A DNA stretch of 41,203 nucleotides, taken from Multifurca ochricompacta. Taxonomy: Eukaryota > Basidiomycota > Agaricomycetes > Russulales > Russulaceae. The notes beneath the pieces are model-generated. The model had not been told where the DNA came from and did no database searches. It was given only the letters and a program-made list of their open reading frames with translations. Positions 15,507 through 36,932 of the stretch are shown piece by piece. The position numbers and the translations under genes were made by a program. Position 1 is the stretch's first letter. The number at the start of each line of letters is the position of its first letter. Location: the NCBI GenBank assembly GCA_022496185.1, contig WTXG01000301.1, positions 1 to 41,203 of the forward strand, written 5' to 3'.

Positions 15507-16091
15507 TGTTACGTCCGGTGTGAGATGTTCTGCACGACGTGTGCGACAGCTTTGTACGTGTATCAGATAAGAAGTCAATAGGACCTCTTGGAGTTCGAGT
15601 GGATGAGTCAAAGTCAACAGGGCTATTCCCGAGTGACAATGTCGAGCGGAAAGTGCCAGAAGCACTGAGATGATCAAGTTAAAGGGTCCTAGGGGAAGTC
15701 CAGAAGACAAACACCGATGGATTCAATAAGTCGAGTCTGAAGTCTACAATGTAGTTACAGCGGACTTATATATGTAATCGAATGGGCGTCTACAGATAAG
15801 ATAACGGAGTCAAGTGGGTCCAAATATACGGAAGCGGACGGCGTAGAGTCGAGCTTCTGATAGGGAATTAAGTAAGTGTCCGGTCGTAAAGATAAGGGAT
15901 AAAAGATAAGAGATAAGAGCCCAAACACGAGTACAGCAACATAAGCATAGACAAAGGCAGTCACGGGGAAGGGAGTAGGGCACGTGAAGGATCCCATGAT
16001 GGAGACGTGATCTGGTAATGTAAAGTAGGCGGCAAGGAGGGATCATCGTTAGGTAGGAAGAAGAAAGTCGGAAGAGACGGGGTTCGTAACA
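15507..16091 (-). repeat. 3' LTR of gypsy A
   Basis: 585 bp, from TGTTACGTCC to GGTTCGTAACA on the plus strand. The polypurine tract AGAAGAGGGGGTGA (minus strand) adjoins it at 16092-16105. Confidence 0.95.
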
Positions 16092-22345: not shown

Positions 22346-22356
22346 AGGCTCGACTT
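22346..22356 (-). promoter_or_regulatory. Primer-binding site of gypsy A (self-primer type)
   Basis: AAGTCGAGCCT starts two nucleotides after the 5' LTR. It is complementary, with one mismatch, to AGACTCGACTT at 22590-22580 in the R region, which lies 34 nt after the TATATAAG box (22624-22617). It does not begin with the TGG typical of tRNA-primed elements. Confidence 0.65.
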
Positions 22357-22358
22357 GA

Positions 22359-22943
22359 TGTTACGTCCGGTGTGAGACGTTCTGCACGACGTGTGCGACA
22401 GCTTTGTACGTGTATCAGATAAGAAGTCAATAGGACCTCTTGGAGTTCGAGTGGATGAGTCAAAGTCAACGGGGCTGTTCCCAAGTGACAATGTCGAGCG
22501 GAAAGTGCCAGAAGCACTGAGATGATCAAGTTAAAGGGTCCTAGGGGAAGTCCAGAAGACAAACACCGATGGATTCAATAAGTCGAGTCTGAAGTCTACA
22601 ATGTAGTTACAGCGGACTTATATACGTAATCGAATGGGCGTCTACAGATAAGATAACGGAGTCAAGTGGGTCCAAATATACGGAAGCGGACGGCGTAGAG
22701 TCGAGCTTCTGATAGGGAATTAAGTAAGTGTCCGGTCGTAAAGATAAGGGATAAAAGATAAGAGATAAGAGCCCAAACACGAGTACAGCAACATAAGCAT
22801 AGACAAAGGCAGTCACGGGGAAGGGAGTAGGGCATGTGAAGGATCCCACGATGGAGACGTGATCTGGTAATGTAAAGTAGGCGGCAAGGAGGGATCATCG
22901 TTAGGTAGGAAGAAGAAAGTCGGAAGAGACGGGGTTCGTAACA
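22359..22943 (-). repeat. 5' LTR of gypsy A
   Basis: 585 bp, ends TGTTACGTCC and GGTTCGTAACA on the plus strand. It contains the TATATAAG box at 22624-22617 (minus) and the self-primer motif at 22590-22580. Confidence 0.95.
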
Positions 22944-23130: not shown

Positions 23131-24396
23131 ACAACACGTTCATTTATGGCTACTCAAGATCCCTCAAATATTGTTGGTTTATGTTCAGAAGATTGAAATG
23201 ATCCTTTATTTACATTATTATTTTATTATTCTGGTTTCATTTCATACAAGCGCGACTGTCCTAGTCCCTGGATGCACATTTCTGCACGTTTAAGTCAACC
23301 TTCCTTAATAGGAAGGAGGTCAGACCACCATGCAATGCAATGTAGTTGCTGCCCCATGCAGCTTGTAGACACATGCGGGCCTTGTTTCAATAAAGTAATT
23401 TGATAATTAAATTATAGAATAGTCTATATTAGTCTAGAGTGTATTTTAGATAGTGCCAGACCGGCAGAATTGGTCGCGCGTTAATAAAACAGATGTATCA
23501 TGGTTTTCAAGAAAGTGGATCACTGATAAGGATTTTATTTTACATCGCACCGTTGATCTGCTTTGATATTTTGTAGGATAATACTAGAACATATTTAACG
23601 CTACCCTGTAGCATACATCAGATGAGATCTTGTATTTTGTGACTGCAGATGTGTTTTATCTCGGAAATTCTACTGATCTTATCAATGCATAATCGGCGCC
23701 TATATGTTACAAACCCCACCGCGTCGTCTTGTTTTCTTTTCCCTATCATGTGACTCGCTGTTGGGACGTGTTGATCCCCATTGTTGACTGTGTTGTGACT
23801 GGCTTTGTCCTTGTTTGTCCCTTATCTCTGACTCATGCTGTGCTTATCTATGACTCATACCTTACATCAGAACACTTATGTATTTTCCCACCAGAATTGC
23901 GACTATACCAGATTCGTCTACGTATATTCTCACCGGGCCCACCTGACTCCATTCCCCCTTTGGATATATTGCGACTTCGTTGATATGCCGAGTACAATAC
24001 TCTGATTCAGACTCCGATTTCTATTACGTATATACAGTGCCTCACAAAACTGAGTCAATGTTTTGCACCTTTGCACTGTTTGTTGAATATTGCATCAGCC
24101 AAAACAAATATAAACAAGGTCTTGGTGTACCATAAAAGGTACACGATAAGGGTTATGTAATGCAACAATGATTATGTAATTCTGATCAAAACCTGTGGAG
24201 CTATGCCCATTTCAAATTGGGGACTCATTGACTCAGTTTTGTGAGGGGGTATCAGAAATATCAGAATCTGATGCTCCACCAAATGTACAGCAACCAATCC
24301 TTAATATATGGTTACCATAGTTATCTTGATATTGATGGGACCTGGAATAGAGCTATTTAACCATGGTTTACATTCCCAGGATAATATAATTTCCCA

Positions 24397-24840
24397 ATGC
24401 ACCCCACCTCCTCTGCTCAGAAAGAAAACATGCTCTCTCTGGCCTCTGAAGGTCATTCCACTGACACTATTGCCTCCAGACTCAGCCTCAGCCAGTCCAC
24501 AGTCTCTAGGACACTCAGAACCCTCCTTCCCAACCATCAGTCACCTCATTTTGGTCATCTTTCCAAGCTCTCTGCTACCTCTGAACATGCTATCATCATA
24601 CAAATCACCACAGGAAAGATTGCCAATGCTGTCCAGGCCACAAAGCACATCAATTCCATCATCCCCAGCCATGTCTCTTCACAAACTGTGCACTGGGTTC
24701 TTAAACAACATTCATTCAAGGCTGTAACAAAGAAGAAAAGGCCACTACTCTCTGCAGTACATTGCAAGAAGCACTTAGCCTTTGCTTTGAAGTACAGAGA
24801 GTGGACTGTGGAGGACTGGCATCTGACCCAAACCTGTTGA
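24397..24840 (+). pseudogene. Tc1-type transposase, N-terminal fragment, left arm
   Basis: The frame reads MHPTSSAQKENMLSLASEG, then a helix-turn-helix of the Tc3/Tc1 type (HSTDTIASRLSLSQSTVSRT) and a second DNA-binding part (SSQTVHWVLKQHSFKA). Homology to the right arm ends after EDW (24819), before the first catalytic Asp; the last residues come from the loop. The product could at most bind DNA. Its start is shared with the right-arm copy at 25294. Confidence 0.85.
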
Positions 24841-25294
24841 TTTTGGTCTCATCTGACCAAATCACCCTCTCCCAGTCCTCCATAGTCCATTTTTGGTACT
24901 TCAAAGCAAAGGCTAAGTGCTTCTTGCAATGTACTGCAGAGAGTAGTGGCCTTTTCTTCTTTGTTACAGCCTTGAATGAATGTTGTTTAAGAACCCAGTG
25001 CACAGTTTGTGAAGAGACATGGCTGGGGATGATGGAATTGATGTGCTTTGTGGCCTGGACAGCATTGGCAATCTTTCCTGTGGTGATTTGTATGATGATA
25101 GCATGTTCAGAGGTAGCAGAGAGCTTGGAAAGATGACCAAAATGAGGTGACTGATGGTTGGGAAGGAGGGTTCTGAGTGTCCTAGAGACTGTGGACTGGC
25201 TGAGGCTGAGTCTGGAGGCAATAGTGTCAGTGGAATGACCTTCAGAGGCCAGAGAGAGCATGTTTTCTTTCTGAGCAGAGGAGGTGGGGTGCAT
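24716..25294 (-). pseudogene. Tc1-type transposase, N-terminal fragment, right arm
   Basis: This copy matches the left arm and continues through the loop as WERVIWSDETKINRFGSD. The block includes the first catalytic Asp of the DDE/D motif (SDET). It then runs into the antisense of the left arm and becomes meaningless. The two later catalytic residues are absent. The loop thus holds the only unpaired transposase sequence. Confidence 0.85.
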
Positions 25295-26048
25295 TGGGAA
25301 ATTATATTATCCTGGGAATGTAAACCATGGTTAAATAGCTCTATTCCAGGTCCCATCAATATCAAGATAACTATGGTAACCATATATTAAGGATTGGTTG
25401 CTGTACATTTGGTGGAGCATCAGATTCTGATATTTCTGATACCCCCTCACAAAACTGAGTCAATGAGTCCCCAATTTGAAATGGGCATAGCTCCACAGGT
25501 TTTGATCAGAATTACATAATCATTGTTGCATTACATAACCCTTATCGTGTACCTTTTATGGTACACCAAGACCTTGTTTATATTTGTTTGGCTGATGCAA
25601 TATTCAACAAACAGTGCAAAAGTGCAAAACATTGACTCAGTTTTGTGAGGCACTGTAAGGCCTGCCTAGATAGCCTGTATGCCTTAGACTCGACTTCTTA
25701 ATCGACTTGGTGCATTACCTTCTGGGTGGTTCCTAAGACCCGACTCTTGAATCGTCTCAGTGCTTCTGGCACTTGTCCACTCACCGACACCAAGGGATTA
25801 GCTCCTTTGTGTTGACTTCTCACTCGAACTCCGTGTACTTGAAAGACAGTGCATACCTGACTCCGTAGTTCCGCTACACGACTTATCACATGTCGTGACG
25901 AATGCCCGCACCAGGCGTTACACTATACCTGCCAAACCCGCCGCATGGGTACAGGTTTCCACGGGTTGGGAGCCATATACCCATACCCGTACCTGGCAAA
26001 ACCTGTGGCGCTTACCTGTGCAGGTATGAAACCCCTTGACAATCACTA

Positions 26049-27838: not shown

Positions 27839-28060
27839 TGTTGACACAGTCAGGTGTCGCACGATGCAACTCTGCATGACCTCATATAGGAGGTTGTGTA
27901 CCACTATGAACCTGAGGCCATGTAGCTCAGTGGTTTAGAGCACTGGACCTGGCTTGTCCAGAGGTCTTGGGTTCAATCCCCAACATGGCCATTTCTTTTC
28001 TAGTGTGTGAGCCAGGGTCCTGTTTAAGGTCCCTTGATTGGGGTGTGTGTTTAGCCAACA
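27839..28060 (+). mobile_element. 222-bp LTR-like (TRIM-like) element carrying a tRNA-like gene
   Basis: The ends are TGTTGACACAGTC and TTTAGCCAACA, flanked by an exact 5-bp duplication CATGT (27834-27838, 28061-28065). hAT1 lacks the block at the matching place (about 1389), which confirms an insertion. The first 11 nt equal the start of the family-3 LTR, so the same integrase may serve both. There is no poly(A) tail and no long SINE-type duplication. Inside lies a near-complete tRNA cloverleaf. Confidence 0.8.
27916..27991 (+). tRNA. tRNA-like gene with an unusual anticodon arm
   Basis: Acceptor GGCCATG pairs perfectly with CATGGCC. The D arm is GCTC-AGTGGTTTA-GAGC, the T arm TTGGG-TTCAATC-CCCAA, and the discriminator is A. 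An A box (TAGCTCAGTGG) and a B box (GGGTTCAATCC) are present, and TTTT at 27996-27999 could terminate RNA polymerase III. The anticodon stem CTGGA/TCCAG leaves a 9-nt loop. If a sixth C-G pair is allowed, the 7-nt loop CTGGCTT would give anticodon GGC (Ala). The non-standard loop suggests a tRNA-like or pseudo-tRNA rather than a working decoder. It sits wholly inside the 222-bp mobile element. Confidence 0.6.
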
Positions 28061-28360: not shown

Positions 28361-28822
28361 CTGTGCCATGCCTGTTCCACAAAATGAAATAAAATAATAA
28401 AAATAAACTTAATCTTCTGAACATAAATCAGCAATTATTGAGGGATCCTGAGTAGCCACAAATGAACACATTGTATCCAAGTGCGTATCTCCTTGACCGG
28501 GATGGACTGGGCTGAGTGTCTGAAATGCATGATGCAAGTAAAGAACTTGCACATGTTTCATTTTATGGGTAACCTGGGTATCAAAACAAATATCCAGGGG
28601 TTACCCCTGCCAATCACTATGCATTTGTCAATTATTTTTGCATTCTATGCGGTTATCTGACAGGCTTTTCATCAATGTTCTATAACATCTATCTAATCAT
28701 CTTTGTATATTGGGGTGGATTTTAGTTGTGCTTGTATAAAATTGAAACCAGAATAATAAAACAACAATAGAATAATGAATTATCTTAATCCTATGAATAT
28801 AAAACAGGAATCTTTGAAGGAT

Positions 28823-29415
28823 TGTTACAATCCCTGCCGAGCAACCCCATTTTCTTCACCCTTCCCAACGACAACCCCTCCTTACCACCTACCCTACACT
28901 TCATGATTACGTCCCCATCCTGGGATCCATCACGTGCTCTCCTCCCGTCCCCGTGACCTCCGTTGCACTTGTTGACTCATTGTTTACCTATGCTTGACCC
29001 TTATCTTGTTATCTCTTATCCCTTTATCTTTACGACCGGACACTTACTTAATACCCTATCAGAAGCCAGGCTTTACGCCCTCTGCTTTCGTATATTTGGG
29101 CCCACCTGACCCCGTTGTCCTTATCTCATTGGCGCCCGTTTACTTACGTATATAAGTCCACTGTAGCTACCTTGTAGACCTCAGACTCGACTTATTGAAT
29201 ACATCGGTGCCTGTCTTCCGGACATCCCCTTTGAACCCTTGACTCATTCGTCTCAGTGCTTCTGGCACTTCCTGCTCAACATTGTCTCAAGGCGCAGCCC
29301 TTCTGACTTTGACTCATCCCACCTGAACTCCAAGGAGCCTTATTGGTTCCTTACCTGAACTCGCAGACTGAGCTGTCACACAAGTCGTGTGGAACGTCCC
29401 GCATTGGACATAACA
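28823..29415 (+). repeat. 5' LTR of gypsy B
   Basis: 593 bp, TGTTACAATCCC to TTGGACATAACA. The TATATAAG box at 29149-29156 is followed 34 nt later by AGACTCGACTT (29183-29193), the putative self-primer. Confidence 0.95.
29149..29193 (+). promoter_or_regulatory. Core promoter and self-primer of gypsy B
   Basis: TATATAAG at 29149 and AGACTCGACTT at 29183 place the primer motif where the transcript should begin. The same 34-nt spacing is found in gypsy A (22624 to 22590) and in the family-2 LTR at 36609 to 36575. Confidence 0.7.
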
Positions 29416-29417
29416 TC

Positions 29418-29428
29418 AAGTTGAGTCT
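29418..29428 (+). promoter_or_regulatory. Primer-binding site of gypsy B
   Basis: AAGTTGAGTCT lies two nucleotides after the LTR. It pairs with AGACTCGACTT of the R region over 11 nt, with one G-U pair. Confidence 0.65.
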
Positions 29429-29434
29429 CTCAAC

Positions 29435-30946
29435 GTGGCTTCCAGCCGCAGTCAGACCCTCTTCCGCGAAGAACTCATCGAACGCAGAGACAAGCATAAT
29501 CTTTCACAACAAGTACTTGGCTCTGCCACCTGGAAAGACTTTGAATCCGAGTTTGGATATTACGTCTATCACGACGGAAGATACCAACCGGTAGAATATG
29601 ATGACGAAAAGAGAGTTTGGTACTGTATCCGATACTCGGACAGCCGACACTCTTGGGTCACTACAGGACCCACCCCACCTGAATTCGGATTAGGACCATG
29701 GAGAGAGAATCCCCCGGCCATTGTCACGGACTCTGAACCAGAAGAGTACGTAGAAGAATCTAGTGAAGAAGCACTGGTATTAGCGTCGACTATTGCCCCA
29801 GTTGCACCCAGAGTTGCCACGTCCGGAGCCCCCACTTTGACAACTCCCCAGATTTCCATACAGTCTACCGACACCATCACCCCATTCTATCAAGGAATGT
29901 CTACTATCGCTGCCCAACTCCCAGACCCAGCTCCCCCTCCTCCACCACCAGCTATGCTGCCACCAAATATTCCCCCACCATCGGGACGCCTGTCGGGTGT
30001 ATTGCCACAGACATTCACAGGAGACCGATCACAGAGCAAGAAGTTTATGTTGGAGTTTATGGCTTTCAAAAACTTCAACCACGATGTCCCCCAGATCATC
30101 AACCCTTTCCAACGAGCCAACCTCTTCTTATCATTAATTCGAGGGGAGGCCGTAGATGACTGGACTATGGAACAGCTGGAATGGCTGAACAAACAGATTG
30201 AAAGTGGACGCCGTACCACTAGCGAGGGCCTTTGGGAAACCATTGCCCAAAGATTTAAAGATGCATTCACTGATGGGCAGGCCAAGCAGAAGGCTGCTCG
30301 AGAGCTAAAAGCCCTGAGAATGGAGAAGGGAGAACTGGACGCCTATGTAGCAAAGTTCAGAAGCCTGGCCAACAGAGCCAGTTACGACACAGATGAAGAA
30401 GCGACATTGGATCTCTTCTCCCAAGGGTTGCCCAATCCACTGGTAAAGAACATCATCCAGTTCCACCACCCCAATGATTGGGACACTTGGGTCGACGCTG
30501 CACGACGACAGCAGCAGGATTACCTCGACTTCCAGACACACTTTGGAATCGACATGAAGAAGGGAAAGACCCGCGACCAATGGAAGGCCGCCTTCAGGGT
30601 CAAGCCTGTGCACTCCAGTCAGAGGGACCCGAATACCATGGATACCTCAGCCAACAGAACTAGAGCACGAGTTGCACTCACCGAAGATGAGAGGCAGACG
30701 TTGATGAAGGAAGGAAGGTGCTTTCGATGTAAAGCACAAGGGCATATGTCAAGGGAGTGCCCGAAGAAGGGGGTGCAAGCGGCCGAGGCAACAACTGCGC
30801 CCATACGCAATAACCCACCGACTGTCGAAAAGAAAACGCCGACAAAAGAAGAAAAGGCGCAAGAGATATGGGCAAACATGATGAAAGAAAGTGAGGAAGT
30901 GCGGGCCATTTTGGTCGAAAAGGCATTCGCAAAAAAGGATTTTTGA
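29435..30946 (+). CDS. gag of gypsy B, 503 codons, non-ATG start
   Basis: The frame opens after a TAA in the last LTR bases and has no ATG for about 150 codons. The first codon aligned with gypsy A is GTG (29435), and the upstream residues are conserved between copies (FGYYVYHDGRYQPVEY, GLGPWRENPPAIVTDSEPEE). A proline-rich linker follows (about residues 160-185), then the Gag core (GVLPQTFTGDRSQSKKFM, AKQKAARELKALR, SQGLPNPLVKNII). One CCHC knuckle lies at about residues 429-442 (CFRCKAQGHMSREC). The Lys/Glu-rich end (TPTKEEKAQEIWANMM) reaches TGA at 30944-30946. It would form the particle and bind genomic RNA. pol follows in the -1 frame. Confidence 0.88.
   Translation: MASSRSQTLFREELIERRDKHNLSQQVLGSATWKDFESEFGYYVYHDGRYQPVEYDDEKRVWYCIRYSDSRHSWVTTGPTPPEFGLGPWRENPPAIVTDSEPEEYVEESSEEALVLASTIAPVAPRVATSGAPTLTTPQISIQSTDTITPFYQGMSTIAAQLPDPAPPPPPPAMLPPNIPPPSGRLSGVLPQTFTGDRSQSKKFMLEFMAFKNFNHDVPQIINPFQRANLFLSLIRGEAVDDWTMEQLEWLNKQIESGRRTTSEGLWETIAQRFKDAFTDGQAKQKAARELKALRMEKGELDAYVAKFRSLANRASYDTDEEATLDLFSQGLPNPLVKNIIQFHHPNDWDTWVDAARRQQQDYLDFQTHFGIDMKKGKTRDQWKAAFRVKPVHSSQRDPNTMDTSANRTRARVALTEDERQTLMKEGRCFRCKAQGHMSRECPKKGVQAAEATTAPIRNNPPTVEKKTPTKEEKAQEIWANMMKESEEVRAILVEKAFAKKDF
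30926..30946 (+). other. gag-pol junction, candidate -1 frameshift zone
   Basis: Codons GCA AAA AAG GAT TTT TGA end gag; A AAA AAG is a possible slippery heptamer. pol lies in the -1 frame. In gypsy A the corresponding bases are A AAG AAG, but GGATTTTTG is shared. Confidence 0.4.
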
Positions 30947-33900
30947 TTGGCTCAAACCCATCGGCCTGGGCATGAGCATTACATGTAACCTCTGTGTACA
31001 CTAGTCGCTTCAAATCGTTGAAAATACCAGTACATTTCGAAACTACACAGAGGACGGCTGACCGTGACATCCTGATTGACTCAGGTGCCACCGATAACTT
31101 TATCAGTCCACAAATGGCGCGGACCATGGGACTGGGAATGCTGGCACTTCCCCAAGAGAAGAACATTTGGAATATTGATGGGACCGCCAATCGAGCGGGC
31201 AGGATTACACATTATACTGATCTCAACGTTCAAGTGGGAGAAGTAACAAAAGTTATTCGTTTCCTAGTCACCAACCTAGGCAACGAAGATGTTGTTCTGG
31301 GATACCCCTGGCTTGCGGCATTTGAACCAAAAATCAACTGGAGGGATGCGACCATGGACAAAGAGTTCTACCCCGTCCTCATCACGTCAATAGGGTACGA
31401 CTATGCCGTTCGACATTCAGTAGCACGCAGAGTGGAAAAGGAGAGTGAAGACCCTGGTTACTGTTTCACTACCAAAGCATCGGAGCTTGCGCAGAAGGCG
31501 GTGGAAGGACAGGCTGAAAAGACCTTTGAAGAAGTGGTGCCCGAAGAATATCGCCGACATTGGAAGGTATTCTCAGAGGAAGAATCCCAACGCTTCCCAC
31601 CTGTGCGACCATGGGACCACGCTATCGACTTTGCACCCGATACCCCGTCGGCAATTGACTGCAAAATTTACCCATTGTCACAGGTGGAACAAACAGCACT
31701 TACAGCATTTCTCGAGGAACATCTTGCAAAAGGGTACATCCGTCCATCAAAGTCACCATACGCTTCACCATTCTTCTTTATCAAGAAGAAAGATGGAAAA
31801 CTTCAGCCTGTCCAGGATTATTGACGAATCAACACCTACACCGTAAAGAACGCCTACCCGCTGCCACTTATATCAGAACTCATTGATACCATGCGAGACA
31901 AATCCCTATTTTCTAAGATGGATGTCCGCTGGGGATACAACAACATCCAAATCAAGGAAGGAGACCAGTGTAAAGCAGCATTCAAAACCAACCAAGGGCT
32001 CTTTGAACCAAATGTCATGTTCTTCGGTCTCACCAATTCACCCACCACGTTCCAGTCCATGATGAATCATATCTTCCATGACCTCATTCTTACTGGCGAG
32101 GTTGTAGTGTATATGGACGATATCCTGGTAGCCACTGCAAACGATCTTGCCCACCATCGCGAATGGGTACACCAAGTGTTGGACATCCTGCATGAGCATG
32201 ACCTATACCTTAAACCAGCTAAATGTTCATTCGAACAACCAAGTGTGGAATACTTGGGAGTTATCCTGGAAGGAGGGCATGTGCGAATGGACCCGGTAAA
32301 GATCCAAGGGGTCCGGGAGTGGCCCATACCCATGTGTGTCAAAGACGTGCGGTCCTTCGTTGGGTTTTGCAACTTCTACCGATGCTTTGTTCAAGGATTC
32401 TCAGGGATCACCCAACCACTAAACGGACTACTGAAGAAAGACGTCCCATGGCACTGGGCGGAGGAACAACAGCGCGCTTTTGAACAAATCCGCAATATCA
32501 TCAGCTCAGAACCAGTTCTACTACAGCCAGATCTAGAAAAGCCTTTTGAACTGGAAGTTGACGCGTCTCGTTTTGCCAATGGAGCGGTACTGAATCAACG
32601 AGACGTGGCTGGGATGCTTCACCCGGTGGCCTTCTACTCAGAGACGTTCTCATTGGCAGAGCGAAATTACGACATTTGGGACAGAGAGTTACTGGCCATT
32701 GTGAAGGCCCTATGACATTGGCGACCATACCTAGCGGGAACCCCTCATAAGACTATTATTCATACTGACCACTCCAACCTGCTCTATTGGAAGGAGCCCC
32801 ACAAGATCAGTCAACGGGTCGCTCACGAAGTCCTGGAGCTGGAAGAGTACAATTTCGTACTGAAACATATCATGGGAAGTCGCAATGCACATGCCGATGC
32901 TCTATCACGACGATCAGATTTAGACAATGGTGGGGAGGACAACAATGATATCACAGTACTCCCTGAAGAGGTCTTCGCGAAAGCGGCCGTCATCAGTCTT
33001 CACGATATGGACTTGTGGGCTCAAGTGTCGCAGAACATGAACCCGCAATTATGTGAATCATGGGCAGATGCACATAATCTGAAGAAAATTGATGGCCTCT
33101 GGTGGAAGGACAGGGATCGTCTCGTTGTCACCAGTGGCGACAACATTAAGAGTGGGGTGATCCATTTTCACCATGACCTCCCCTCAGCAGGACACCCAGG
33201 AATTGCGAACACATATGCCTTGGCCAAGAGAGATTACTGGTGGCCAAGCATGAAGAAGGATGTGGAGAGCTACGTGAAAGGATGTGCGGAATGCCAAGCC
33301 AATAAAGTCAACACACACCCGCATCCACCAGCTCTATTCCCAATCACGCCCATGAACTCGATGCCGTTTCAGACTGTCGCGATGGACTTCATCGTGAAAC
33401 TGCCCACATCAAGGGGCTTCGACTCAATCCTGACTGTTACGGACCACAACTGCTCCAAAGCAGCACTGTTCATACCCTGTAATGAGTCCATCACAGCGGA
33501 AGGAGTAGCCAGACTTTACCTGGACCACGTCTACAGACATTACAGCCTCCCCCAGAAGATCATCTCCAACCATGATCCACACTTCACTTCCGCCTTCGCT
33601 AAGGCGCTCTGTAAAATACTGGACGTAACCCAAAACATCTCAACAGCCTACCACCCACAGACCGATGGGCAATCAGAAAGGACAAACCAGTGGTTGGAAC
33701 AATACCTTCAGTTCTGGTGTAACGGGCGACAAGATGATTGGGCTGACTGGCTAGCAACAGCGGAATTCATGCACAATTTGTGGCCCAATGGCACCACTAA
33801 AGCCTCTCCATTTTCCCTTATCATGGGATGGACGCCGCGAACCACCTGGACCAACAAACCCACAAACGTCCCATCAGCTGCGCAGCGTATCAGCCAATGG

Positions 33901-34425
33901 GAAGAGATCAGGCAATCGGCCAATGAGAACTTGCTGAAGGCGCAAAAGACCCTGTCGGAGAAACCCTCAAAGTTCACGCCTTATCAGACCAATGACTTGG
34001 TATGGCTTGAAGGGAAGAACATCCGTATGTCACATCCAACGGCCAAGTTAGCACCCCGATGACATGGACCCTTCAAAATAACACGGAAGCTGTCAGATGT
34101 GTCATACGAGCTTGAACTTCCACCCACGTGGAGGATCCACCCAGTCTTCCACGCCAGACTCCTGACACCATATAAGGAAACACCCCTGCACGGGGAAAAC
34201 TTCCCAAGGCCCCTCCCAGAACTGATTGATGGAGAAGCGGAATGGGAAGTGGATCAGATTCTAGACTCCATACATAAAGGCCGAGGGCGCAAACTGCATT
34301 ACCTTGTCAAGTGGAAGGGATTCCCAGACTCTGACAACTCGTGGGAGCCAGCCGGGAATATCTTTGCCCCAGTCCTTATCTCGGAGTTCCATGCCCGACA
34401 CCCAGAAGCGCCCAAGGACACTTAA
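30947..34425 (+). pseudogene. pol of gypsy B: PR-RT-RNase H-IN-chromodomain, four stops
   Basis: Order: protease (LIDSGATDNF, 31072), RT (KDGKLQPVQDY; YMDD 32110-32121), RNase H (VDASRFANGAV, about 32560; HTDHSNLLYW, about 32765), integrase zinc region (HFHHDLPSAGHPG; CAEC), integrase core (MDFIVKLP; DGQSERTNQ), GPF module (34069) and chromodomain ([17 protein letters not shown], about 34300) with its aromatic residues. The ORF ends TAA at 34423-34425. In-frame TGA stops lie at 30973, 31822, 32713 and 34060; the first, third and fourth replace Arg codons of gypsy A. The IISDRD motif reads IISNHD (Asn at 33568-33570), so the second catalytic Asp of the integrase is lost. The frame is otherwise free of indels. 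The chromodomain would direct integration to methylated-H3 chromatin. Confidence 0.92.
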
Positions 34426-34462
34426 AAGAGCAGCCCTAGACCCCAACTAAATTCCCCAGTAC

Positions 34463-35713
34463 ATGCTCCCTCAGCAACGTCCTACCTCCAAACAATCCAT
34501 TATGTCTTTCATCGCTGCCAACGCCGCTGTCGACACCTTCACCGCCACCACAGTGGTCGTCAAGAACTTTCCCTCCGCTCATCCCTCCACACGTCCCTCC
34601 TCACCCATCGACTATGAGGCCGCAGAAGCCCGAGTCAAAAGACAATCCCCGAATCCCAATGATGACTTTGACCACAGCGAAGAGCCGCACCCAAACGACC
34701 TCTTGGGTATGGAATTAGATGACAAGGTCCCAGAGTTCCCATTTATTGCTAACAACCCCAACTCCTCCATGTATTTCCCCCTGGAGATTACAATGGCCGA
34801 TGGGACAACTGCCATCGCCAAGTATATCTTTTACACGAATGGGGGAATGGATGTGGCTGGGTGCATGAAGAAGGATGGCCCCGTTTATGGGGCTCCTGTT
34901 TATCTGGAGGAAAGGTATACTGGATGCCTCCATCACACGATGACCGACAAGCAACTAGGGCACTTGGCTGCAGAAGACACACGAGCCTTTGCCATTGACG
35001 AAGTACTCAATGACATGCGGCTTCCACACCTCAAGGCTGAGGTCATGAGGCTGCTGAAGAACCTGACGCTCCGTTCCACGCTCAACAAACAGTATAAGGA
35101 GCACGCGAAGATGATGGCGAGGCTGACAAATGGAATGTTCCAGATAGAGCAGGAGTTGGTGGAGATTCGAAAGAGATTGGAGATAGGGGACGCGTATCAA
35201 ACCATCGCTGAAAGGTACGCCGACACTTATGCACGGCCTCTCCCCCCACGATCCTTGGGTGCGGCCCCTGTGCTGCTGCCCAACCGATTCGAGATGCCGT
35301 GCATGCATGAGAATCCCCACAGTGAAACATGCTGGCACTGTGATAGCAAGTACCACATCAGCTGGAACTGCCCACTCAACCACAAGTGGTGCCATCACTG
35401 TCGCAGCAACCTGCATTGGAGCCGATTCTGCATCTTTCACCGGGTAGGAGTCACTCCGATGATCAGCAACCCGTCAGCATGGTGTGGCAAGTGCCTCTGA
35501 CATAACGCGGGACACCGCGAATTGGATTGTCCAGTCCATGACCTCTGCTGCTCCTGTGGGCAACGCGGCCCTTATGGGTTCCTCCGTACCCACCAATGTC
35601 CACAAGATTCAGACAAAGAGAACTACACACTGGATGATCGTAATGTAGCGGATGACTATCTGGATTGGTACAGGATGATGACAGTACGAGTCGTTTCTAG
35701 CTGGGTCTGCTAG
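34463..35713 (+). pseudogene. Third ORF of gypsy B, zinc-knuckle protein
   Basis: It starts 37 nt after the pol stop, with ATG at 34463 or the in-frame ATG 34502 (MSFIAAN), and is conserved in gypsy A and C. Features: an N-terminal low-complexity part (HPSTRPSSPIDYEA), a conserved block (ITMADGTTAIAKYIFYTNGG; MKKDGPVYGAPVYLEE), a charged helical region about residues 175-250 (LKAEVMRLLKNLTL, EQELVEIRKRLE), then four knuckle-like motifs (CWHCDSKYHISWNC, CHHCRSNLHWSRFC, CGKCL-HNAGHRELDC, CCSCGQ...THQC). A TGA at 35498-35500 splits the third motif. A 1-nt loss near 35662 changes the acidic C-terminus. No signal peptide or membrane segment is seen, so it is not an envelope protein. The function is unknown; RNA or DNA binding is likely. 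Confidence 0.85.
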
Positions 35714-35730: not shown

Positions 35731-36322
35731 TGTTACAATCCCTGCCGAGCAACCCTGTTTTCTTCACCCTTCCCAACAACAACCCCTCCTTACCACCTAC
35801 CCTACACTTCATGATTACGTCCCCATCCTGGGATCCATCACGTGCTCTCCTCCCGTCCCTGTGACCTCTGTTGCACTTGTTGACTCATTGTTTACCTATG
35901 CTTGACCCTTATCTTGTTATCTCTTATCCCTTTATCTTTACGACCGGACACTTACTTAATACCCTATCAGAAGCCAGGCTTTACACCCTCCGCTTTCGTA
36001 TATTTGGGCCCACCTGACCCCGTTGTCCTTATCTCATTGGCACCCGTTTACTTACGTATATAAGTCCACTGTAGCTACCTTGTAGACCTCAGACTCGACT
36101 TATTGAATACATCGGTGCCTGTCTTCCAGACATCCCCTTTGAACCCTTGACTCGTTTGTCTCAGTGCTTCTGGCACTTCCTGCTCAACATTGTCTCAAGG
36201 CGCAGCCCTTCTGACTTTGACTCATCCCACCCAAACTCCAAGGAGCCTTATTGGTTCCTTACCTGAACTTGCAGACTGAGCTGTCACACAAGTCGTGTGG
36301 AACGTCCGCATTGGACATAACA
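35731..36322 (+). repeat. 3' LTR of gypsy B
   Basis: 592 bp, one base shorter than the 5' LTR (GTCCGC against GTCCCGC near the end). Most other differences are C/T or G/A at CpG sites. Confidence 0.95.
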
Positions 36323-36932
36323 GAGAGACTCGACTTAATGTAACGCCTGGTGCGGGCGTTCGTCACGACGTGTGATAAGTCGCATAGCGAAACTACGAAG
36401 TCAGATGTGCACTGTCTTTCAAGTACACAGAGATTGGGTGAGGAGTCAACACAAAGGAGCTAATCCCTTAGTGTCAGTGAGCGGAAGAGTGCCAGAAGCA
36501 CTGAGACAGTTCAAGAATCGGGTCTGAGGAATCACCCTGAAGGTAATGCACCAAGTCAATTAAGAAGTTGAGTCTAAGGTATACAGGCTATCTAGGCAGG
36601 CCTTATATACGTAATAGAAGTCGGAGTCTGAATCGGAGTACCGTACTTGATGTATCAATGAAGTTGTAATGTATCCAAAGAGGGAACAGGGTCAGGTGGG
36701 CCAGATGAGAATATACATAGACAGATCCAGTATAGTTGCGATTCTGGTGGGAAAATACGTAAGAGTTCTGAGGTAAAGTATGAGTCATAGATAAGCAAGA
36801 AGTCGAGTCATAGATAAGGAACAAACAGGCGCAATATCAGTCATAACATGGTCAACAAGGAAGCAAACAAAGCCAAGCAACATGTCACATGATGGAAAAA
36901 GGAAACAAGACAATGCAACGGGGTTCATAACA
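36323..36932 (-). mobile_element. 5' LTR plus 16-nt leader of a family-2 element, body lost
   Basis: The LTR spans 36339-36932 (594 bp, TGTAACGCC to GGTTCATAACA on the plus strand). Left of it, 36323-36338 is the leader with primer site AAGTCGAGTCT (36336-36326), two nucleotides from the LTR. Its reverse R region has AAGTTGAGTCT at 36565-36575, 34 nt from the TATA start at 36609. The element body has been replaced by gypsy B. The right side cuts into a family-3 LTR. Confidence 0.88.

What the first reader, a model, noticed from the sequence alone, without database searches (positions are those of the whole stretch)
29149..29428. Self-priming (Tf1-like) geometry in these chromoviruses
The primer site two nucleotides after the LTR (AAGTYGAGYCT) is complementary over 11 nt to AGACTCGACTT, which lies exactly 34 nt after the start of TATATAAG, where transcription should begin. 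I find this in gypsy B (29183-29193 with 29418-29428), gypsy A (22590-22580 with 22356-22346, one mismatch) and the family-2 element (36575-36565 with 36336-36326, one G-U pair). Family-1 and family-2 LTRs are otherwise very different, so the motif pair looks selected. Tf1 of fission yeast is known to prime reverse transcription with the first 11 nt of its own mRNA; the 2-nt gap fits integrase end-processing.
Basis: partly seen in the sequence, partly recalled or inferred. Interest (0 to 1): 0.87.

Follow-up and report, generated by a model that had tools for sequence, protein, structure and literature searches.

The report
Fungal retrotransposons that prime themselves
Several families of jumping genes in this genome, probably that of a mushroom-type fungus, carry just after their first terminal repeat a short stretch complementary to the predicted first 10-11 letters of their own RNA, so they likely copy themselves into DNA using a piece of their own message as primer, a trick known from the Tf1 element of fission yeast.

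Summary
Gypsy B pairs with ten Watson-Crick pairs and one G-U; gypsy A and family 2 each have one A-C mismatch. The 11-mer with its partner at the right spacing occurs at 1042 places in the host genome, against 0 for the reversed pattern, and follows TATATAAG by 33-35 nt in the 100 LTRs listed.

Other families gave the decisive evidence. Families b/c and a carry different 10-mer pairs (ATCTTGTCCT/AGGACAAGAT; AGACTGTCCA/TGGACAGTCT) in the same geometry: 34-35 nt after the TATA-like box, 2 nt after the LTR end. Family-1 11-mers vary almost only at their CpG and show no clear compensation, but the leader fold does: 17 of 49 predicted pairs have compensated changes, including a helix beside the primer helix, as in Tf1's 'pretzel'. 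tRNA matches were no better than shuffled (partial tRNA set).

Gypsy B encodes a chromodomain and an SH3_Tf2-1 domain. This is Tf1/sushi-type self-priming, new members of a known kind. Unexpectedly, families b/c carry the primer block twice, around an intron-like segment. RNA start and primer cleavage are inferred; no RNA data exist here.

The parts
28823..29415 (+). gypsy B 5' LTR
   Evidence: 97.5% identical to 35731-36322; begins TGTTACA, ends ATAACA
29149..29156 (+). TATA-like box TATATAAG of gypsy B
   Evidence: sequence; 34 nt before the primer 11-mer
29183..29193 (+). self-primer 11-mer AGACTCGACTT, predicted first 11 nt of the RNA
   Evidence: same place in the LTRs listed
29204..29210 (+). 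5' arm of the second leader helix (TCGGTGC)
   Evidence: columns 22-28 of alignment A2; covariation with columns 235-241
29255..29269 (+). leader hairpin AGTGCTTCTGGCACT with compensated changes
   Evidence: columns 78-93 of A2; G-C to A-U in 6 of 31
29332..29352 (+). leader hairpin with the most compensated cells
   Evidence: columns 165-185 of A2; 4 of 8 pairs with two-sided changes
29401..29407 (+). 3' arm of the second leader helix, just upstream of the primer site
   Evidence: columns 235-241 of A2
29416..29417 (+). 2-nt gap (TC) between LTR end and primer site
   Evidence: LTR end set by 5'/3' LTR comparison
29418..29428 (+). primer-binding site AAGTTGAGTCT of gypsy B
   Evidence: 10 Watson-Crick + 1 G-U with 29183-29193
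35731..36322 (+). gypsy B 3' LTR, with primer 11-mer copy at 36091-36101
29435..30946 (+). gag ORF (Retrotrans_gag, CCHC knuckle)
   Evidence: Pfam
31891..32715 (+). reverse transcriptase / RNase H
   Evidence: Pfam
32872..34062 (+). integrase (H2C2 zinc finger; core only weakly matched)
   Evidence: Pfam; rve E 0.0012, below its cut-off, in 32716-34059
34063..34422 (+). integrase C-terminus: SH3_Tf2-1 domain and chromodomain
   Evidence: Chromo E 5.6e-15, SH3_Tf2-1 E 4e-11
22359..22943 (-). gypsy A 5' LTR
   Evidence: 98.8% identical to 15507-16091
22580..22590 (-). gypsy A primer 11-mer AGACTCGACTT
22346..22356 (-). gypsy A primer-binding site AAGTCGAGCCT (one A-C mismatch)
15507..16091 (-). 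gypsy A 3' LTR, primer 11-mer copy at 15728-15738
36565..36575 (-). family-2 primer 11-mer AGACTCAACTT
36326..36336 (-). family-2 primer-binding site AAGTCGAGTCT (one A-C mismatch), 2 nt (TT) after ...GTTACA
   Evidence: LTR end by comparison with the solo copy ending ...GTTACA near 25922

Best explanation
These chromodomain-bearing Ty3/gypsy elements most likely start reverse transcription by self-priming: the predicted first 10-11 nt of their own RNA would fold back onto the complementary site 2 nt after the 5' LTR and be cut free as the primer. Steps shown by sequence: the complementary pair, its fixed place 33-35 nt after a TATA-like box and 2 nt after the LTR end, replacement of both arms together in other families, and covarying helices in the leader. 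Steps inferred from Tf1: transcription starts at the first base of the primer, the element's RNase H cuts after base 11 (or 10), reverse transcriptase copies the 2-nt gap and then U5 and R, and integrase later trims the 2 extra nt. A further inference from retroviral primer-site inheritance (recalled): because plus-strand synthesis copies the attached primer, the site can be rewritten from the primer in each cycle. Copying, and not only selection, may therefore keep the two arms matched.
For: Pair and geometry verified in all three window elements. Genome-wide hits at the right spacing: 1042 family-1/2, 58 b/c (two of them overlapping at one place on C367) and 103 class-a, 0 in each reversed control. 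Whole-arm replacement at the same geometry: class b/c ATCTTGTCCT / AGGACAAGAT, 34 nt after TATATAAG (class b) or after ATTTAAAG (class c), with ...GTTACA|TT|site; class a AGACTGTCCA / TGGACAGTCT, 35 nt after TATATAAA, with ...GTAACA|TT|site; LTR ends set by 5'/3' LTR comparison in one copy of each class. Chance of a 10-mer complement within 4 positions of the expected place is about 4/4^10, 4e-6 per family (arithmetic). Predicted mean pairing probability of the primer/site helix is 0.61-0.96 in 31 of 31 family-1/2 leaders, 0.96-0.97 in 5 of 5 class-a leaders folded and 0.91-0.96 in 10 of 10 b/c leaders folded. RNAalifold on the 31 leaders: 97.2% of cells paired, 17 pairs and 87 cells with two-sided changes, covariation score 0.215; 0 of 500 shuffles reach any of these four. 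The helix next to the primer helix (LTR just downstream of primer x leader just upstream of site) has C-G in 15 and U-A in 13 leaders at one pair, 3 unpaired. Chromodomain and SH3_Tf2-1 domain. Among the 120 relatives listed, one is named 'retrotransposable element tf2 155 kda protein type 1-like' (Lyophyllum shimeji). tRNA match no better than shuffled (partial set).
Against: No RNA or cDNA data: neither the start site nor primer cleavage is tested. Within family 1 the 11-mers vary almost only by CpG decay, and compensation of type is not significant (14 both-decayed leaders, Fisher p 0.40; in the 28 motif-unselected leaders 14 identical against 12.9 expected, p 0.39). In the 78 leaders tabulated (one, on C9, counted in both samples) 11 carry a mismatch at that CpG. 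One measure, 'further standard pair types', did not exceed shuffles (37 against 37.5, 367 of 500). The gypsy A leader uses only 7 of 11 primer pairs in its MFE, and single-leader folding energies are not exceptional (z -1.70 and -0.88). The third Tf1-type duplex shows no covariation and an energy test of flanking duplexes was negative. Of RT-anchored loci, 3 of 14 (b/c) and 4 of 10 (a) lacked one or both arms in the stretch fetched; for two of these (C40, C28) one search lists a pair elsewhere on the contig, the other five are unexplained.
Confidence: 0.88

Rival explanations
1. A host tRNA (3' end or an internal half-tRNA piece) primes these elements and the match to the LTR is secondary.
For: Class a's site begins TGG, as tRNA-primed sites do. 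The tRNA set searched was incomplete.
Against: Family-1/2 and b/c sites lack TGG. Best tRNA complementarity is no better than for shuffled sites (fractions 0.12, 0.91 and 0.18 of 300 shuffles reach the observed run for family 1, b/c and a). Class a's TGG is fully matched by its own LTR 10-mer. Both arms change together between families.
Confidence: 0.04
2. The paired 11-mers serve RNA folding, dimerisation or packaging, or translation control, and not priming.
For: The whole leader is a covarying fold, so long-range pairing could have other uses.
Against: The site sits 2 nt after the LTR end in the families examined, where the primer site of an LTR element must be, and no tRNA-type site was found there for family 1/2 and b/c. 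The partner sits at the predicted RNA 5' end.
Confidence: 0.07
3. The pair is shared ancestry or a repeat-driven coincidence without function.
For: Families 1 and 2 are still alignable in R-U5, and within family 1 the arms show no clear compensation.
Against: Families a and b/c have different 10-mers yet keep complementarity and geometry.
Confidence: 0.01

Closest known systems
Tf1 and Tf2 of Schizosaccharomyces pombe (Tf1/sushi chromoviruses)
   Same: Complement between the RNA 5' end and the primer site, 11 nt in Tf1; RNA fold required; chromodomain (passages in PMC7175516 and PMC10085805); SH3_Tf2-1 type integrase C-terminus here.
   Different: Here only sequence evidence; different 11-mers; 2-nt gap between LTR and site found here (Tf1's own spacing was not checked); third duplex of the Tf1 'pretzel' not supported by covariation.
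Tj1, Tosmo1-3, Tcry1 of other fission yeasts
   Same: Self-primers and, for all of them, potential pretzel folds proposed from sequence (passages).
   Different: Ascomycete yeasts; here about 1200 primer/site hits in one genome, which allows covariation tests.
Tcn1 of Cryptococcus and Tcn1-like chromoviruses
   Same: Basidiomycete chromovirus proposed to self-prime (passage in PMC7175516).
   Different: The same passage says Tcn2-5 may use novel priming; whether the present families belong to either branch was not tested. The spikemoss element SM-Tcn1 showed no primer site (passage in PMC2864245), and Dictyostelium Skipper chromoviruses no LTR complement (passage in PMC5006619).
TAR-lineage (Houba, Osr-1) Ty1/copia elements of plants
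   Same: Predicted self-priming (passage in PMC6317226).
   Different: Different superfamily (copia).

Membership tests
Tf1/sushi self-priming chromoviruses | Chromodomain at the integrase C-terminus | tested here: met
   Chromo E 5.6e-15 at window 34063-34422; tested for gypsy B only, not for families 2, a, b, c
Tf1/sushi self-priming chromoviruses | Site next to the 5' LTR complementary to the LTR segment at the predicted RNA 5' end | tested here: met
   Three window elements and families a, b, c
Tf1/sushi self-priming chromoviruses | RNA actually starts at the first base of the primer | not testable with these tools
   Only the 33-35 nt distance from a TATA-like box
Tf1/sushi self-priming chromoviruses | RNase H cleavage after base 11 producing the primer | not testable with these tools
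   Inferred from Tf1 (passage)
Tf1/sushi self-priming chromoviruses | Three-duplex 'pretzel' fold of the leader | tested here: inconclusive
   Primer/site helix and one flanking helix supported; third duplex only an invariant candidate; energy test of flanking duplexes negative
Tf1/sushi self-priming chromoviruses | Reverse transcriptase falls in the Tf1/sushi clade | not tested
   No tree was built
tRNA-primed LTR elements | Site complementary to a host tRNA (TGG start for 3'-end priming) | tested here: not met
   No TGG in family 1/2 and b/c; class a has TGG but no better tRNA match than shuffled; 46 tRNA-like sequences of about ten isotypes tested, so internal-tRNA priming is not excluded
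Spliceosomal intron (segment between the two primer blocks of families b/c) | Splice-site-like ends, branch-like motif, and copies lacking exactly the segment | tested here: inconclusive
   GTGAGT, GTGCGC or GTGCGG ... CTAAT/CTGAT ... CTGYAG; 265 of 315 block-pattern hits carry the GTGMGY start; copies without the segment exist, but deletion between the 23-nt repeats would give the same product

The most novel reading that the evidence does not exclude
Families b and c carry a leader intron in R whose last 23 nt duplicate the self-primer exon. When spliced RNA is reverse transcribed, its strong-stop cDNA can land on the second copy of the block in the unspliced 3' LTR, so the intron is restored with every cycle and the two blocks are kept identical: a self-primed retrotransposon with a splicing-proof leader intron.
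Probability: 0.13. Interest if true: 0.8.

Novelty: new member of a known kind. Interest (0 to 1): 0.5.

Why it matters
Self-priming is known experimentally from Tf1 and is proposed from sequence in relatives. Here one genome holds about 1200 primer/site hits in three sequence versions, plus a leader whose helices covary. That makes the structure of a self-priming leader readable from natural variation, and shows that both arms can be replaced together while the geometry stays fixed. The doubled primer block with an intron-like spacer raises a concrete, testable question about how an intron in R could survive reverse transcription.

Tried and rejected
Compensatory changes inside the family-1 11-mers: rejected as unsupported. 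Nearly all variation seen is CG to TG or CA (one A-C at another position, gypsy A). In 50 pairs that I tabulated by hand from the rows printed, 40 have identical states against 29.0 expected by permutation (none of 20000 permutations as high), but older copies decay in both arms, so this is confounded by age. In the 28 motif-unselected leaders it is 14 against 12.9, and among 14 both-decayed leaders the type does not match significantly. One leader, on C9, is in both samples.

tRNA priming: ARAGORN gave 47 distinct outputs from the held sequences; one of 249 letters was dropped and 46 were tested. Nineteen are Ser calls, many of them one tRNA-derived repeat. The set holds about ten isotypes; initiator Met, Asp, Glu, Gln, Asn, Phe, Tyr, Trp, Pro and His were not in it, so the test is partial. 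The parsed text carries a few extra trailing letters and, in some, the intron.

Relatives in other genomes: two scans of viral contigs gave no confirmed relative (4 and 62 stretches matched a peptide pattern), so all DNA comparisons come from one genome. Flanking duplexes by duplexfold energy: negative; covariation later supported one of them. Whether LTRs lacking the b/c spacer arise by splicing or by deletion between repeats could not be separated. Rfam on the window: only the tRNA at 27916-27991. Literature, open PMC library only: self-priming with chromovirus, basidiomycete, primer site or pretzel; intron with LTR, R region or self-priming (searches listed nothing; one search listed four papers, seen only as a listing). 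A Laccaria TE paper (PMC3411680) has no occurrence of priming, PBS or tRNA. Absence there is not absence from print.

Full report
WHAT IS THERE. The window lies in a 53.8-Mb eukaryotic genome (605 contigs). Of the 120 relatives of its pol protein listed, four carry an organism's name: Lyophyllum shimeji (two), Dentipellis fragilis, and a more distant Vitis vinifera record (40% identity over 67%). The host is therefore probably an agaricomycete; it was not identified further. Gypsy B (LTRs 28823-29415 and 35731-36322, 97.5% identical) and gypsy A on the other strand (LTRs 22943-22359 and 16091-15507, 98.8%) have both LTRs; the family-2 element is an LTR plus primer site cut off by the gypsy B 3' LTR. 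Gypsy B encodes gag, protease, RT/RNase H and integrase, with an SH3_Tf2-1 domain and a chromodomain, in several frames.

CHECK OF THE OBSERVATION. All coordinates hold. Genome-wide, the pair at its spacing marks 1042 places with 0 in the reversed control. TATATAAG followed by the 11-mer has 2749 hits with 0 in the control, and although offsets of 22-52 nt were allowed, the 100 listed lie at 33-35 nt (88 at 34).

SAMPLING WITHOUT THE MOTIF. To avoid circularity I took leaders by similarity of the gag start (20 of the 39 non-window places) and of RT (9 of the 141 places, chosen mostly among low scorers). Both arms are present within one substitution each in 28 of 29. A test for matched states is negative where sampling was unbiased (14 of 28 identical, 12.9 expected, p 0.39) and positive but confounded by age in the 50 pairs printed (40 against 29.0); type matching among 14 both-decayed leaders is not significant.

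OTHER FAMILIES. A search with Pfam RVT_1 (150 of 1904 candidates scored) gave other gypsy RT classes. Reading upstream of their RT showed other pairs in the same geometry. Class b (C379) and class c (C315): LTR end ...CCCGTTACA, then TT, then AGGACAAGAT; in the LTR, ATCTTGTCCT begins 34 nt after TATATAAG (class b) or ATTTAAAG (class c). Class a (C12)...GTTGTAACA, TT, TGGACAGTCT; AGACTGTCCA begins 35 nt after TATATAAA, and the LTR end is confirmed by a 27-nt match to the 3' LTR. Of RT-anchored loci examined, both arms were seen in 11 of 14 for b/c and 6 of 10 for a; one class-a locus (L134) had the primer only, and the other six showed neither arm in the stretch fetched (for C40 and C28, one search lists a pair elsewhere on the contig). 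Genome-wide hits are 58 and 103, controls 0. Class a shares AGACT with family 1 and differs at most other positions in both arms; b/c is unrelated. This joint replacement at fixed geometry is the main evidence for function.

THE LEADER FOLD. With the RNA taken from the first base of the primer to the end of the site, the primer/site helix is predicted in each leader folded: mean pair probability 0.61-0.96 in 31 family-1/2 leaders (three from the window), 0.96-0.97 in 5 class-a and 0.91-0.96 in 10 b/c leaders. RNAalifold on the 31 leaders (A2) gives 49 pairs, 17 with compensated changes; 97.2% of cells are paired, against 93.1% in shuffles, and 87 cells changed on both sides, against 29.1. None of 500 shuffles reaches the observed percentage, compensated pairs, compensated cells or covariation score, while the count of further pair types does not exceed shuffles. 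Related sequences can exceed such shuffles without structure; slid structures, which keep relatedness, fall to 29-43% paired and 2-12 compensated cells. The helix next to the primer helix joins the LTR just after the primer (29204-29210) to the leader just before the site (29401-29407), with C-G in 15 and U-A in 13 leaders at one pair. That corresponds to one of the two flanking duplexes described for Tf1's 'pretzel' (passage in PMC10085805). Two hairpins (29255-29269, 29332-29352) covary. The other flanking duplex, using sequence after the site, has only an invariant 7-bp candidate, so it is unproven.

RIVALS. tRNA priming is unlikely: sites of family 1/2 and b/c lack TGG, and matches to the tRNA-like genes held are no better than for shuffled sites, though that set is incomplete. 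Another use of the pairing cannot be excluded without RNA data, but the position directly after the LTR end is where an LTR element must start its cDNA.

THE DOUBLED PRIMER. In families b and c the block ATCTTGTCCTCTTGGGGCTGYAG occurs twice in the LTRs examined. The first copy is at the predicted RNA start. The second is 59-67 nt (c) or 96-98 nt (b) further on. After the first copy comes GTGAGT, GTGCGC or GTGCGG, and a CTAAT or CTGAT motif lies before the end of the second, so the stretch looks like a small intron ending with the second block. Of 315 hits of the first block with its upstream CCCC, 265 carry this start. In the 100 listed, 17 run straight on into the sequence that otherwise follows the second block. 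Four of these that I fetched are 82-98% identical to b or c LTRs in their aligned parts. Three of the four show no primer site after the LTR (solo or 3' LTRs); L154 has one. Splicing followed by reverse transcription and deletion between the 23-nt repeats would leave the same product. Folding predicts that the first copy pairs with the site (0.91-0.96) and the second hardly at all (at most 0.01). Without the segment, primer-to-site lengths are 206-209 nt (b) and 234-237 nt (c), against 210-250 nt in the other families. The most novel reading, that the second block lets spliced strong-stop cDNA recover the intron from the 3' LTR, is inference.

COMPARISON AND VERDICT. Self-priming was shown for Tf1 and is proposed for other Tf1/sushi chromoviruses, including Tcn1 of Cryptococcus (passages seen in PMC7175516, PMC4600332, PMC10085805 and PMC6317226; of the primary papers one, Lin and Levin 1997, was looked up and is not held, and the others are cited through these passages). 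The present families are new members of that kind. Transcription start, cleavage and integrase trimming are not shown here.

Noticed in passing
L093, L098, L101, L103-L107, L109, L111, L112 (e.g. L106:325-445), families b/c: Self-primer block of 23 nt present twice in the LTR around an intron-like segment (GTGAGT/GTGCGC/GTGCGG ... CTAAT ... CTGYAG); some LTRs lack exactly this segment.
   Followed up: partly
window 34451-35500 (+): Extra ORF between the chromodomain and the 3' LTR of gypsy B, no Pfam family at E below 0.001. Third codon positions change 3.3-4.3 times as often as first positions in four comparisons with other copies in the window, so it looks protein-coding under constraint. 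Its C-terminus holds two CX2CX4HX4C motifs like zinc knuckles (motif recalled, read by eye).
   Followed up: partly
window 27916-27991 and many genome places: tRNA-like sequences GGCC(A/G)TGTAGCTCAGTGGTTAGAGC... called Ser or Ala by ARAGORN recur at many places; likely a tRNA-derived repeat (SINE-like).
   Followed up: no
window 24102-25589: Inverted repeat, 718-nt arms 99% complementary with a 52-nt spacer, lying between two pieces similar to the family-2 LTR (23705-24034 and 25656-25925).
   Followed up: no
window 28818-28822 and 36323-36327: Sequences flanking gypsy B (AGGAT and GAGAG) do not match, so no target-site duplication is visible; the element or its flanks may be rearranged. The 3' LTR ends 3 nt from the family-2 primer site.
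   Followed up: no
family-1 leaders: Variation inside the 11-mers is CG to TG/CA in the leaders tabulated, as decay of methylated CpG in the host would give (inference).
   Followed up: partly
L097, L133, L135, L137, L138, L141, class a, just before the primer site: A long hairpin (TACAAC..ACTGTC..GACAGTGAGTTGTA) ends 5 nt before the primer site in class a leaders.
   Followed up: no
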